Assembly (NCBI RefSeq): GCF_009687865.1
Contig: NZ_BLAE01000100.1
Coordinates: 1-32,602 of the forward strand
Origin: Acrocarpospora macrocephala
Lineage (GTDB): Bacteria; Actinomycetota; Actinomycetes; Streptosporangiales; Streptosporangiaceae
Length of the DNA: 32,602 bases
Direction of reading: 5' to 3'
Under the pieces are notes generated by a model. That model was not told where the DNA came from. It ran no database searches and saw nothing but the letters and a program-made list of their open reading frames with translations. Below are positions 21,709 through 25,121 of the stretch, in pieces; position 1 is the first letter of the stretch, and each line of letters opens with the position of its first letter. The translations under genes and the position numbers were made by a program.

Positions 21709-21800
21709 TCAACGAGAAACCCGTCCCCATAGACAACCGCATAGCCACCGACCAGGCTACTCACCGCCGCGGTTGGCCAGGATCACGCCTTTCTCATTGA
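21709..21800 (-). repeat. Imperfect repeat element, copy 1 (structured, about 92 bp)
   Basis: The element is bounded by TCAACGAGAAA (21709-21719) and TTTCTCATTGA (21790-21800), which pair when read as minus-strand RNA (one G-U). An inner stem joins CAACCGC (21734-21740) and GCGGTTG (21769-21775). About 79 of 90 aligned positions match copy 2 at 25032-25121, with two one-base gaps. The element occupies nearly the whole leader of the SRAP gene, ending one base from its ATG. TTGA at its other edge could serve the aroA -35. Its nature (structured RNA or small mobile repeat) is not known. Confidence 0.8.
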
Positions 21801-21821
21801 GCTCACAGCCTGCCCCACCGA

Positions 21822-21827
21822 TAGGCT
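21822..21827 (+). promoter_or_regulatory. -10 box TAGGCT for aroA
   Basis: TAGGCT ends six bases before the aroA ATG. TTGAGC (21797-21802) lies 19 bases upstream as a possible -35, partly inside the repeat element. There is no Shine-Dalgarno sequence, so aroA is probably leaderless. Confidence 0.42.
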
Positions 21828-21833
21828 GGACGC

Positions 21834-23111
21834 ATGTCCGCTCCCTTGTGGCCCGCGCCGACGGCCGCCGAGCCCGTCACCGCGACCGTCCGCCTGCCCG
21901 GCTCGAAGTCGGTGACCAACCGCGCGCTGCTCCTGGCCGCGCTCGCCGACGGCCCGGGTTGGGTGCGGCTCGCGCTGCGCAGCCGGGACGCCGACCTGAT
22001 GACCGCCGCGCTGACCACGCTCGGCGCCCGCATGACCGCCTCCAACGAGACCGCGGAAAGCGCCGACTGGGCCTTCACCCCCGGCCCGCTCACCGGCGGC
22101 GGCCACATCGAGGTCGGCCTGGCCGGCACCGTGATGCGCTTCGTCCCCCCGGTGGCCGCGCTGGCCGACGGCGAGGTCTCCTTCGACGGCGACCCGGCCG
22201 CCCGCAAACGCCCGATGGGCACCATCCTGTCCGCGCTGCGCACCCTGGGCGCCCAGGTCAGCGCCGACACCCTGCCGTTCACCATCCGCGGCCCGCTGAC
22301 CGGCGGCGAGGTCTCCCTGGACGCCTCCGGTTCCTCCCAGTTCGTCTCGGGTCTGCTGCTGGCCGCCGCCCGGTTCGAGAAGGGCGTGACCGTCCGGCAC
22401 GTCGGCCCGCCGGTGCCCTCGATGCCGCACATCGAGATGACCGTCCAGATGCTGCGCGCCCGCGGCGTCGAGGTGGACGACAGCGAGCGCGACCTCTGGC
22501 GGGTGGCCCCGGGCCCGATCGCGGCCACCGACTTCACCGTCGAACCCGACCTGTCCAACGCGGCCCCCTTCTTCGCCGCCGCGATGGCCACCGGCGGCGC
22601 GGTCACCGTGCCGGACTGGCCGGCGGAGACCACCCAGCCCGGCGACCACCTGCGCCATCTCCTCGCCGGCATGGGCGCCCAGGTGACCCGGGTGCCCGGC
22701 GGCCTCGAAGTGCGCGGCACCGGCACGATCACCGGCCTCGACGCCGACCTGCGCGAGGCCTCCGAGCTGGCGCCCACGCTGGCGGCCCTGGCGGCGCTGG
22801 CCGTCTCGCCCACCCGGCTGCGCGGCATCGGGCACATCCGCGGCCACGAGACCGACCGCCTGGCCGCGCTGGTCACCGAGATCAACCGCCTCGGCGGCGA
22901 CGCCAACGAGACCGAGGACGGCCTGGAGATCCGCCCGCGCGCGCTCACCGGCGGCGTCTTCCACTCCTACGAGGACCACCGCATGGCCACCGCCGGCGCG
23001 GTGCTCGGCCTGGTCGTGCCCGGAGTCCAGGTGGAGGACATCGCCACCACGCGCAAGACCCTCCCGGACTTCACCCGGATGTGGGCGCACATGCTGGGGG
23101 ACATGTCCTGA
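21834..23111 (+). CDS. aroA: 3-phosphoshikimate 1-carboxyvinyltransferase (EPSP synthase)
   Basis: AroA condenses shikimate-3-phosphate with phosphoenolpyruvate in the shikimate pathway. The 425-residue protein shows [20 protein letters not shown] near the N-terminus, the [16 protein letters not shown] loop (position of the PEP/glyphosate site), [53 protein letters not shown] and [13 protein letters not shown]. All are typical and intact. The ATG at 21834 has a -10 box directly before it. The downstream rsgA appears to start with CTG overlapping the aroA stop, so the two form an operon, as in several other actinobacteria. Confidence 0.96.
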
Positions 23112-24157
23112 GAAAGAGGGAATACGACGAGGACGACGTCCGGGTCCGGCCGGGGAAGGGCTCCCGCCCCAGGACCCGGCTCCGGCCTGCCCACGAGGAG
23201 GCCGTCGAGGGTTTCGTGATCGCCGTCGACCGTGGCCGCATCACCTGCCTGATCGGCCCGAACATCCCGGCCCTCCCGCCGCTGGTGGACGGCGAGGCGC
23301 CGATTCCGCGACGCCGGGGGAAGGATGCCGCCGTGGTGGTGGCCATGAAAGCGCGCGAACTCGGCCGCAAGGGCATCGTCGTCGGCGACCTGGTCGCGCT
23401 GGTCGGCGACGTGTCCGGCAGACCCGACACGCTGGCCAGGATCGTTCGCCGCGAGGCGCGCCGCTCGATGCTGCGCCGCAGCGCGGACGACAACGACGAG
23501 GTCGAGCGCCCAATCGTCGCCAACGCCGACCAGTTGGTCATCGTCACCGCGCTGGCCGACCCCGAACCCCGGCCCCGGATGATCGACCGCATGCTGGTGG
23601 CCGCCTTCGACGCCGACATCGAACCGTTGCTCTGCCTCACCAAGGCCGATCTCGCGTCCCCCGACTCGCTGGTCGCCCAGTACGAGCCGCTCGGCGTACC
23701 GTACCTGGTGGTAGAGAGGGGCGGCGACCTGGGGGAGGTTCGCGACCATCTCGTCAATCGGGTCAGCGTGCTGGTGGGGCATTCAGGGGTGGGCAAATCC
23801 ACGCTGGTCAACGCGCTGGTACCGACCGCCGAGCGGGCGGTCTCCGACGTGAACGCGGTCACCGGGCGCGGACGGCACACCTCCACCTCGGCGGTCGCGC
23901 TGGAGCTGCCGGAGGGCGGCTGGATCATCGACACGCCCGGGGTGCGCAGCTTCGGACTCGGCCATGTGGAGATGGAAAACGTCCTGGTGGCCTTCCCCGA
24001 CCTCAACGAAGCCACCGTCAACTGCCCCAAAGGGTGCAACCATCTGGGCGACGACTGCGCGCTCAACGCCTTCGTGGCCGAGGGACACGCCGAGCCCGCC
24101 CGCCTCGAATCGCTGCGCAGGCTCCTGCTCAGCCGCGAAGGAAACGCCGAGGACTGA
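23108..24157 (+). CDS. rsgA: Ribosome small subunit-dependent GTPase RsgA
   Basis: RsgA is a circularly permuted GTPase that helps 30S subunit maturation. The protein shows [19 protein letters not shown] at the start, an OB-fold region, [23 protein letters not shown] sequence before the G domain, G4 ([10 protein letters not shown]), the P-loop [15 protein letters not shown], the [15 protein letters not shown] switch, [11 protein letters not shown] and the zinc segment [14 protein letters not shown]. The OB region seems to contain an extra Pro-rich loop ([15 protein letters not shown]). The best start is CTG 23108: it overlaps the aroA stop as CTGA, has GGGGGA six bases upstream and gives the expected N-terminus (349 residues). 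No ATG or GTG lies at the right place; a GTG at 23081 would extend it by nine residues. Confidence 0.93.
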
Positions 24158-24229
24158 TTTTACCGGCCCGCGCCGAGGCACGTAGCATTTGGACCGGTCC
24201 CGCCTCTGATGCGGCCCGTGTATACGCGG

Positions 24230-24235
24230 TAGCGT
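24230..24235 (+). promoter_or_regulatory. -10 box TAGCGT for hisN
   Basis: TAGCGT fits TANNNT and lies eight bases before GTG 24244 and eleven before ATG 24247, with no Shine-Dalgarno sequence. A leaderless transcript starting at the GTG or just before the ATG is plausible. No convincing -35 is seen. Confidence 0.33.
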
Positions 24236-24246
24236 TGTGTCCCGTG

Positions 24247-25026
24247 ATGGGATACAGCGACGATCTGCGCCTCGCGCACGTGATGGCGGACGCCGCCGAT
24301 GACATCACCATGCGCCGTTTCAAAGCCGTCGACCTCAAGATCGACACCAAACCCGACCTCACCCCGGTCAGCGACGCCGACCGCGCGGTCGAGGAGGCCA
24401 TCCGCGGCACCCTGCGCCGCGCCCGCCCCCGCGACGCCATCATCGGCGAGGAGTTCGGCAAGACCGGATACGGCATGCGCTCCTGGGTCATCGACCCCAT
24501 CGACGGCACCAAGAACTACGTCCGCGGCGTGCCCGTCTGGGCCACCCTCATCGCCCTGATGGAAGAGGGCAAGGTCGTCGTCGGCGTCGTCTCCGCGCCC
24601 GCGGTGCAACGCCGCTGGTGGGCCGCGAAAGACGGCGGTTCGTGGACCGGCCGCAGCCTGACGAAGGCCAGCCGCTGCCAGGTCTCCTCGGTGCACCGCC
24701 TGGACGACGCCTCGCTGTCCTTCTCCGACCTGCACGAATGGGAGCAGGCGGGCAAACTCGACAACTTCCTCGACCTGAACCGCGCCGTCTGGCGCAGCCG
24801 CGGCTACGGCGACTTCTGGTCGCACGTCATGGTGGCGGAGGGCTCGGTCGACATCTCGGCGGAACCCGAACTGTCGCCCTGGGACATGGCCGCCATCACG
24901 GTGATCGTGGAGGAAGCGGGCGGCACCTGCACCGGGCTCAACGGCGCGTCACCCCTGGAAGCCGGCAACCTGGTCAGCACCAACGGCCTGCTCCACGGTG
25001 AGGTCCTCAAGCGCCTCGGCGGCTGA
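24247..25026 (+). CDS. hisN: Histidinol-phosphatase, inositol monophosphatase family
   Basis: HisN removes phosphate from histidinol phosphate in histidine biosynthesis. The 259-residue protein has the metal-dependent IMPase motifs: KPDLTPVSDADRAVEEAI, IIGEEFGKTG, the core VIDPIDGTKNYVRGVPVWAT and, near the C-terminus, ISAEPELSPWDMAAITVIVE followed by EEAGGTC. Within the family, HisN is the usual identity in actinobacteria, but inositol or fructose-1,6-bisphosphate phosphatase activity cannot be excluded. Start at ATG 24247 or the adjoining GTG 24244. It is 89 bases behind rsgA and is followed directly by repeat copy 2. Confidence 0.9.
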   Translation: MGYSDDLRLAHVMADAADDITMRRFKAVDLKIDTKPDLTPVSDADRAVEEAIRGTLRRARPRDAIIGEEFGKTGYGMRSWVIDPIDGTKNYVRGVPVWATLIALMEEGKVVVGVVSAPAVQRRWWAAKDGGSWTGRSLTKASRCQVSSVHRLDDASLSFSDLHEWEQAGKLDNFLDLNRAVWRSRGYGDFWSHVMVAEGSVDISAEPELSPWDMAAITVIVEEAGGTCTGLNGASPLEAGNLVSTNGLLHGEVLKRLGG

Positions 25027-25031
25027 TCAAA

Positions 25032-25121
25032 TTAACGAGAAACCCGTCCCATAGCCAGCCGCATAGCCGCCGACCAGGCGATTCACCGCTGCGGCTGTCC
25101 AGATCACGACTTTCTCATTAA
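25032..25121 (-). repeat. Imperfect repeat element, copy 2 (structured, about 90 bp)
   Basis: Outer arms TTAACGAGAAA (25032-25042) and TTTCTCATTAA (25111-25121) and inner arms CAGCCGC (25056-25062) and GCGGCTG (25091-25097) correspond to those of copy 1. One base pair of the outer stem (T-A here, C-G in copy 1) and one of the inner stem (G-C here, A-T in copy 1) have changed on both sides. The element lies between the convergent hisN and CSCRG-protein genes and overlaps the stop codon of the latter. Here it may act in a 3' untranslated region. Confidence 0.8.

What the first reader, a model, noticed from the sequence alone, without database searches (positions are those of the whole stretch)
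21709..25121. Pair of about 90-bp repeats with nested stems and compensatory base changes
Copies at 21709-21800 and 25032-25121 match at about 79 of 90 positions. Both fold on the minus strand into an outer stem (TNAATGAGAAA with TTTCTCGTTNA) closed by one G-U, and an inner stem (CARCCGC with GCGGYTG). Differences between copies are compensated in both stems: C-G against T-A in the outer, A-T against G-C in the inner. The wobble is allowed only in minus-strand RNA. No known riboswitch or repeat family is recognised. One copy forms the leader of the SRAP gene, the other lies in a convergent gap. This could be a new structured RNA or a small dispersed hairpin element.
Basis: seen in the sequence. 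Interest (0 to 1): 0.75.

Follow-up and report, generated by a model that had tools for sequence, protein, structure and literature searches.

The report
Mobile hairpin repeat in Acrocarpospora genomes
The two repeats are copies of a short, self-complementary stretch of DNA that has jumped into dozens of places in this bacterium and its relatives; the two ends of each copy tend to stay matched to each other even when their letters change.

Summary
21709-21800 and 25032-25121 (minus strand) are copies of one 90-bp imperfect palindrome, identical in 79 of 92 consensus columns. They are two of over 40 copies in this genome (44 model hits, E<=0.001). The genus is Acrocarpospora; the four other genomes held for it carry 48, 7, 5 and 27 hits, and a diverged sister type reaches related genera. 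Of 14 tested copies, 11 have an empty or nearly empty site in A. pleiomorpha. Clean sites show insertion at TA with TA duplicated, often inside a stop codon. Copy 1 abuts the SRAP start codon and is absent from two relatives; copy 2 supplies the stop codon of the converging gene. So this is a family of TA-inserting, non-autonomous mobile palindromes (MITE kind), not a regulatory leader. Unusual: the terminal base pairs vary freely but in concert, without the G-U excess that RNA selection would leave, which points to a DNA-level cause (matched ends or template switching). Two stem positions keep strand-specific wobbles, so a folded single strand is not excluded. No mobilising enzyme was found.

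The parts
21709..21800 (-). Element copy 1 (type 1). Outer stem arms on + coordinates 21790-21800 and 21709-21719; inner stem CAACCGC/GCGGTTG.
   Evidence: precise empty site in two relatives
21707..21708 (.). TA on the SRAP side of copy 1, the duplicated target dinucleotide; its minus-strand A is the first base of the SRAP start codon. On the other side of the copy the TA is no longer present.
   Evidence: empty site CACA-TA-CTCAC in L156 and L157
20991..21707 (-). SRAP gene (starts M-C-G-R-Y); the insertion abuts its ATG at 21705-21707. The GTG start at 21764 listed by the ORF finder lies inside the element.
   Evidence: PF02586, E 3.9e-76
25032..25121 (-). Element copy 2 (type 1), between convergent genes.
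25122..25123 (.). TA flanking copy 2 on its 5' side; the other side (25030-25031) reads TT on the minus strand.
25118..25120 (-). TAA stop codon of the converging ORF 25118-25495, supplied by the element end (reads TAT TAA), the pattern left by insertion into the TA of a stop codon. The ORF has no Pfam match.

Best explanation
The repeats belong to a family of non-autonomous DNA transposons (MITE kind): a 90-94-bp imperfect palindrome without a gene. It is moved in trans by an unidentified enzyme into TA dinucleotides, with TA duplicated. It survives mostly in intergenic DNA and in stop codons, presumably because that is where TA occurs and is tolerated in a GC-rich genome. SHOWN: dispersed copies, empty sites, TA target at clean sites, stop-codon use, a diverged sister type in related genera, near-complete pairing of the outer stem over wide sequence change. 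INFERRED: that the terminal pairs change together at DNA level, either because transposition needs two mutually matching ends, or because replication template switching copies one arm onto the other. The folded RNA is probably not what selection sees at the terminal pairs. Copies act on neighbours only by position (new stop codon, displaced leader).
For: Copy number and presence in all five genomes held for the genus. Of 14 own-genome copies tested with joined flanks, 11 have an uninterrupted or nearly uninterrupted match in A. pleiomorpha, 1 is occupied in the opposite orientation, 1 is split by 158 bp and 1 has no match. TA on both sides for L006, L010 and L023, on the left only for L005, L007, L013 and L014. 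Copy 1 has a clean empty site in 2 relatives. Gene 3' ends run exactly 5 nt into the element at 31 of 109 3'-side neighbours, as in TA|A/G becoming TAT TAA. Type 1 lies 24 times between convergent and 8 times between divergent genes, of 113 entries. Pairs 2-5 and 8-12 of 102 copies: 41 double changes that keep pairing, 8 single changes to wobble, 10 broken, against a shuffled mean of 53 broken. Wobble GT 7 and AC 7 at terminal pairs 2-5 of type 1; GT 3 and AC 8 at the first four pairs of type 2. One site carries the element inverted between sister species, an outcome known for template switching (PMC8604942, passages read).
Against: No transposase with matching ends was found. PF13358 gave one hit in the own genome, E 4.9e-4 (22.9 bits by itself, 33.5 with its neighbours in the frame, over Pfam's cut-off), whose flanks were not examined for the element's ends; other transposase families were not searched. 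An end-pattern scan gave only element copies and remnants. Many copies lack TA on one or both sides: 25 of 87 type 1 have both, 10 of 68 type 2. Type 2 shows no excess between convergent genes (8 convergent, 17 divergent of 68), and no genome-wide control for gene context was computed. Pairs 6 and 7 (type 1) and the same positions in type 2 keep strand-specific wobbles, 89 GT to 0 AC and 74 GT to 4 AC; a purely double-stranded constraint does not predict that. Template switching should also hold the flanking TA pairs together, but those vary independently.
Confidence: 0.7

Rival explanations
1. A functional structured RNA (or host-used 3' hairpin, e.g. terminator or mRNA stabiliser) that spreads or is kept because its RNA fold is useful.
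For: Strong covariation in both types: type 2, 94.3% of cells paired, 0 of 500 shuffles as high, slid versions at most 50.7%; type 1 first helix 99.7% paired. Wobbles at two outer and several inner stem positions favour the element's forward strand, the minus strand of the window. In 9 comparisons of full-length copies at 7 shared sites, 11 pair differences, all still paired. Copies that have lost TA on both sides are paired as well as those that keep it (4 of 341 cells unpaired against 5 of 308).
Against: Wobble bias is the same whether flanking genes run with or against the element (++: 17 GT, 3 AC; --: 32 GT, 2 AC), so read-through RNA is not the selecting agent. No bias at the terminal pairs. 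No sigma-70-like site in 21600-25300, and the only terminator-like site is outside the copies (simple consensus scans). Copies are in all contexts, in both orientations, and often absent from sister species.
Confidence: 0.15
2. The covariation is mutational only: dead MITE copies whose arms are homogenised by replication template switching (quasi-palindrome correction), perhaps with gene conversion of the middle, without any selection.
For: Concerted double changes with few intermediates and no strand bias at the ends. 42 of 102 copies have non-consensus terminal pairs (some of them broken) and 40 of the 42 differ there from their nearest relative by inner sequence, three of them with only 1 difference in 68 inner positions. 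Element inverted at one shared site. Mechanism described in PMC8794818 (abstract and passages) and PMC8604942 (passages).
Against: The boundary is sharp: pair 2 is 96 of 102 Watson-Crick, the adjoining TA-derived pair only 50 of 102 with 45.4 expected. The innermost AGAAA/TTTCT pairs hardly vary. Wobble positions stay conserved across genera. Published spacer inversions are of a few bases, here the spacer is about 68. The inverted site may also be two independent insertions.
Confidence: 0.3
3. Element recognised as a folded single DNA strand by a structure-specific recombinase, as integron attC sites are (attC recalled).
For: Ends defined by complementarity rather than sequence; strand-specific conserved wobbles; conserved internal loop in type 2.
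Against: TA duplication fits a double-strand insertion. No replication-strand bias of 39 copies in 6 genomes with known dnaA position (22:17, p 0.52; capped hit list, circular chromosomes assumed). attC core triplets are not kept.
Confidence: 0.1

Closest known systems
RUP of Streptococcus pneumoniae (107 bp, TA target, proposed IS630-Spn1 mobilisation) and BOX/SPRITE
   Same: About 100 bp, no gene, folds into one hairpin; RUP inserts at TA and is enriched between convergent genes, as are BOX and SPRITE (PMC2229807 passages; PMC3049150 passages). Type 1 here also lies more often between convergent than divergent genes
   Different: RUP ends share sequence with an IS; here no IS with matching ends was found, and the outer bases vary in sequence while staying complementary. 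Type 2 here shows no convergent excess
ERIC / RU-1 of enterobacteria
   Same: Small palindromic element with TA at its termini and target duplication, mobiliser unproven (PMC2229807 passages)
   Different: 127 bp (PMC2759123, abstract start in listing), 7-bp terminal repeat; no sequence comparison with ERIC was made
Template-switch mutated hairpins (PMC8794818; PMC8604942)
   Same: Concerted arm changes in one step, and spacer inversion (abstract and passages)
   Different: Those are single loci in genes or RNA genes with short spacers; here a mobile family with a sharp boundary at the element end
REP/REPIN palindromes
   Same: Dispersed palindromes
   Different: REPs are 20-40 bp, tagged GTAG or CGTC (PMC3733652, title and abstract start in listing); tags and RAYT transposases were not tested here

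Membership tests
MITE (non-autonomous DNA transposon) | Short, no protein-coding gene, many dispersed copies | tested here: met
   90-94 bp; 44 hits in the own genome (three of them units of one tandem array), 48/7/5/27 in four relatives
MITE (non-autonomous DNA transposon) | Occupied and empty sites between relatives | tested here: met
   11 of 14 tested copies empty or nearly so in A. pleiomorpha; copy 1 empty in two species
MITE (non-autonomous DNA transposon) | Target-site duplication | tested here: met
   TA at clean empty sites; both TA kept in 25 of 87 full-length type 1 copies and 10 of 68 type 2
MITE (non-autonomous DNA transposon) | Terminal inverted repeats | tested here: met
   11-bp outer stem, 99.7% paired together with the next 3 pairs; but its outer 4 bp are not fixed in sequence
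MITE (non-autonomous DNA transposon) | Ends shared with an autonomous transposon that supplies the transposase | tested here: inconclusive
   End-pattern scan found no long element; one PF13358 hit, E 4.9e-4, flanks not examined; other transposase families not searched
Known Rfam RNA family | Score above a family's gathering threshold | tested here: not met
   Window: only 5S rRNA at 32510-32602; 7 element loci at E<=1: one 17.8-bit IRES_Bip hit below its cut-off, away from the element
Hammerhead ribozyme | Unpaired GAAA and CUGANGA core strands between three stems (recalled) | tested here: not met
   Type 2 has the letters GAAA and CTGATGAG, but GAAA pairs with TTTC in the outer stem
Integron attC | GTTRRRY/RYYYAAC core at the hairpin base (recalled) | tested here: not met
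   Terminal pairs vary among copies in both types, so no fixed core
REP element | 20-40 bp palindrome with a tag, mobilised by a RAYT transposase | tested here: inconclusive
   Length not met (90-94 bp); tags and RAYT (PF01797) not searched

The most novel reading that the evidence does not exclude
A mobile element whose ends are defined by mutual complementarity rather than by sequence: an unknown recombinase recognises the folded strand (DNA or RNA), with two conserved strand-specific wobble pairs as the recognition mark, so that the outer pairs can drift in concert while mobility is kept.
Probability: 0.22. Interest if true: 0.75.

Novelty: new variant of a known kind. Interest (0 to 1): 0.5.

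Why it matters
Covariation is usually read as proof of a functional RNA. Here is a large natural data set (102 full-length type 1 and 68 type 2 copies, some at shared sites in sister species) in which strong covariation occurs in a mobile DNA palindrome with no RNA-type wobble bias at the terminal pairs that change. It is a warning case for covariation-based RNA discovery and a system for asking how palindromic transposon ends stay matched. It also shows how a TA-inserting element is tolerated in a GC-rich genome, by landing in stop codons and restoring them.

Tried and rejected
Riboswitch or SRAP leader: rejected, copy 1 is an insertion absent from two relatives. Known Rfam RNA: none. Hammerhead: letters match in type 2 but the fold does not. 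Single-strand (lagging-strand) insertion: no replication-strand bias, 22:17. IS630-type partner: one PF13358 hit, not followed to its ends. Orphan ends of a longer autonomous element: of 39 pattern sites all but one (L279) coincide with R1 hits or the tandem array; L279 and the weak-hit site L280 are short remnants. Recent local duplication: not supported. Terminators: none predicted at the copies. Weak R1 hits in four other genomes of the family: two (G175, G180) led to type 2, one (L209, G114) does not look like the element, one (G117) was not looked at. Literature: the listings of searches showed no paper on this element or on MITEs of Acrocarpospora or Nonomuraea; only the held open-access library was searched. 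My inner-stem pairs were set one column off; inner-stem statements here rest. In one search the assumed apical helix 3 is not supported (19.4% paired), and pair 28-80 is unpaired in 26 of 68 copies.
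Full report
WHAT IS THERE. On the minus strand each is a 90-bp imperfect palindrome, TTAATNAGAAA ... TTTCTNRTTAA in the family consensus, with an inner stem around CAGCCGC/GCGGCTG. They agree in 79 of 92 consensus columns. Both strands fold far better than their shuffles (minus z -3.2 and -5.1, plus z -3.8 and -5.3). Both quoted compensations are real.

COPIES. A BLAST search of the own genome (12.1 Mb, 166 contigs) gave 41 matches. 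A covariance model from 28 copies (R1) gave 44 hits at E<=0.001 and 53 at E<=1; three of the 44 are units of one tandem array. Of 60 genomes (own included) 5 match, all of one genus: 44, 48, 7, 5 and 27 hits; none of the other 55 (stricter filters). A pattern scan of named genomes returned 41 stretches, all Acrocarpospora: pleiomorpha, corrugata, phusangensis, catenulata. Contig numbers, positions or lengths tie these to G001-G004. The own genome is then probably A. macrocephala (recalled; no call names it). In 341 genomes of the family R1 matched the same five and, weakly, four more.

SISTER TYPE. At the site of copy 2, A. catenulata carries a very diverged relative. From it and from hits in other genera I defined a type 2 of 94 positions including the TA ends. 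A model of 10 such copies (R2) matched 27 of 341 family genomes in 3 of 68 genera: the five Acrocarpospora, 20 genomes of genus g4, and 2 of g82, the latter weakly (best E 4.0e-9 and 1.2e-7). R2 also picks up type 1: the A. corrugata hits listed are type 1 positions, so type 2 proper was seen in four of the five Acrocarpospora. At most 12 candidates per genome were scored and the listing was cut, so copy numbers are lower bounds. Of 394 genomes drawn from the class, two matched: the own genome and G007, same family.

MOBILITY AND TARGET. Joined flanks of 14 own-genome copies were searched in the four relatives. In A. pleiomorpha 11 of 14 gave an uninterrupted or nearly uninterrupted match. L016 is occupied by a copy in the opposite orientation. 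L011 is split by 158 bp that hold a truncated copy and another palindrome. L008 gave no match. TA lies on both sides of L006, L010 and L023, and on the left only of L005, L007, L013 and L014, where the empty site shows one TA; for L023 the clean empty sites are in A. corrugata and A. phusangensis, the A. pleiomorpha site lacks three bases there. The target is unclear for L003 and L021. L018 may be an old loss rather than a never-filled site, because the A. pleiomorpha sequence resembles the element's right end. Copy 1 has a precise empty site in A. phusangensis and A. catenulata and is filled in A. pleiomorpha and A. corrugata. Of 87 full-length type 1 copies, 51 keep TA on the left, 38 on the right, 25 on both; of 68 type 2 copies 23, 23 and 10. 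Copies at shared sites often have the same non-TA junction, so much of this is imprecise insertion or old change.

WHERE IT LANDS. With a simple codon-usage gene caller of my own (starts and small genes are rough), 132 type 1 entries were reduced to 113 by merging 19 entries of shared sites (four of the 19 are tandem units of L033). Of the 113, 36 and 25 lie between genes running against and with the element, 24 between convergent and 8 between divergent genes, 19 overlap a called gene, 1 has an unknown neighbour. Of 109 3'-side neighbours, 31 end exactly 5 nt inside the element, which is what insertion into the TA of TAA or TAG gives: TAT TAA. Type 2 differs: 23 with, 7 against, 8 convergent, 17 divergent, 11 overlapping, 2 with one unknown neighbour, of 68; 3' ends there often run 6 or 9 nt into the element. 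No genome-wide control for gene context was computed. Copy 2 is an example of stop-codon use: ORF 25118-25495 ends TAT TAA inside the element. For copy 1 the duplicated TA supplies the A of the SRAP start codon, so the insertion kept the start codon and moved the upstream DNA 93 bp away. Overrepresentation between convergent genes is reported for RUP, BOX and SPRITE (PMC3049150, passages).

COVARIATION. Type 2: 68 copies aligned without structure, 94.3% of cells paired, covariation score 0.313 against 0.173 shuffled, 0 of 500 shuffles as high, slid structures at most 50.7% paired. Terminal pair 4-103 holds C-G 34, U-A 22, G-C 10, A-U 2, none unpaired. Type 1: first helix 99.7% paired, 6 of 14 pairs with double changes. 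Many copies were found with structure models, which favours paired copies. In 102 full-length type 1 copies the nine pairs 2-5 and 8-12 show 41 double changes that keep pairing, 8 single changes to wobble and 10 broken cells, with 53 broken expected by shuffling. Pairing does not fall with loss of the TA: unpaired cells are 5 of 308, 4 of 473 and 4 of 341 for copies with two, one and no TA. There are 13 sites shared between species besides the L033 array. At 7 of them both copies are full-length: 9 comparisons (three from one site) gave 11 pair differences, 5 concerted, 6 one-sided, none broken. The other 6 sites were dropped because a copy is not full-length; two of these, L020/L129 and L015/L124, do show broken or repaired pairs by eye, and L126 has lost its right end.

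RNA OR DNA? If RNA folding were selected, single-step intermediates should be G-U on that strand, not A-C. At terminal pairs 2-5 of type 1 they are 7 and 7; at the first four pairs of type 2, 3 and 8. Particular positions are biased: pairs 6-7 of type 1 (89 to 0), the same positions of type 2 (74 to 4), and inner type 2 pairs (146 to 24 in sum; this type 2 count is on the model-fitted alignment). In type 1 the bias is the same whichever way the neighbouring genes run. 42 of 102 copies have non-consensus terminal pairs, a few of them broken, and 40 of these 42 differ there from their nearest relative by inner sequence, which for many is 8 or more differences of 68 away. So the ends appear to change in concert again and again. 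Replication template switching is known to homogenise arms and invert spacers (PMC8794818 abstract and passages; PMC8604942 passages). Against it as the sole cause, the adjoining TA pairs do not co-vary. I therefore favour a DNA-level constraint on matching ends, with template switching as helper, and leave the folded single strand open.

TESTED WITHOUT RESULT. No replication-strand bias in 39 copies (22:17, p 0.52; positions from the capped list, one partial hit and one hit on a second contig left out, circular chromosomes assumed). One PF13358 hit, not followed to its ends. No orphan long element.

VERDICT. A real family of TA-inserting mobile palindromes, unnamed as far as the searches reach; new variant of a known kind because its ends are variable yet complementary.

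Noticed in passing
L033 (G000:C25, about 147180-147500): Tandem array: the inner hairpin of the element is repeated about five times with a 59-bp period inside one pair of ends.
   Followed up: partly
L016 and L062: The same site is occupied in the own genome and in A. pleiomorpha by elements in opposite orientation: spacer inversion or independent insertion.
   Followed up: partly
window 25032-25121 and L156:4673-4766: The same intergenic site holds a type 1 element in two species and a type 2 element in A. catenulata, with a possible remnant in A. corrugata; the site seems to be reused.
   Followed up: partly
L374:250-364 (G001:C44): A different palindrome of about 113 bp (TTAACCCCGTTTTCCGCA...TGCGGAAACAGGATTAA) nested at the end of a truncated copy; 31 bases of it match L112 at 87%, so it may be another dispersed family.
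   Followed up: partly
window 21705-21764: The reading frame of SRAP stays open through the element up to a GTG at 21764, so an automatic caller may give SRAP a false N-terminal extension.
   Followed up: no
window 32510-32602: 5S rRNA on the minus strand, cut off at its 5' end by the window end (Rfam).
   Followed up: no
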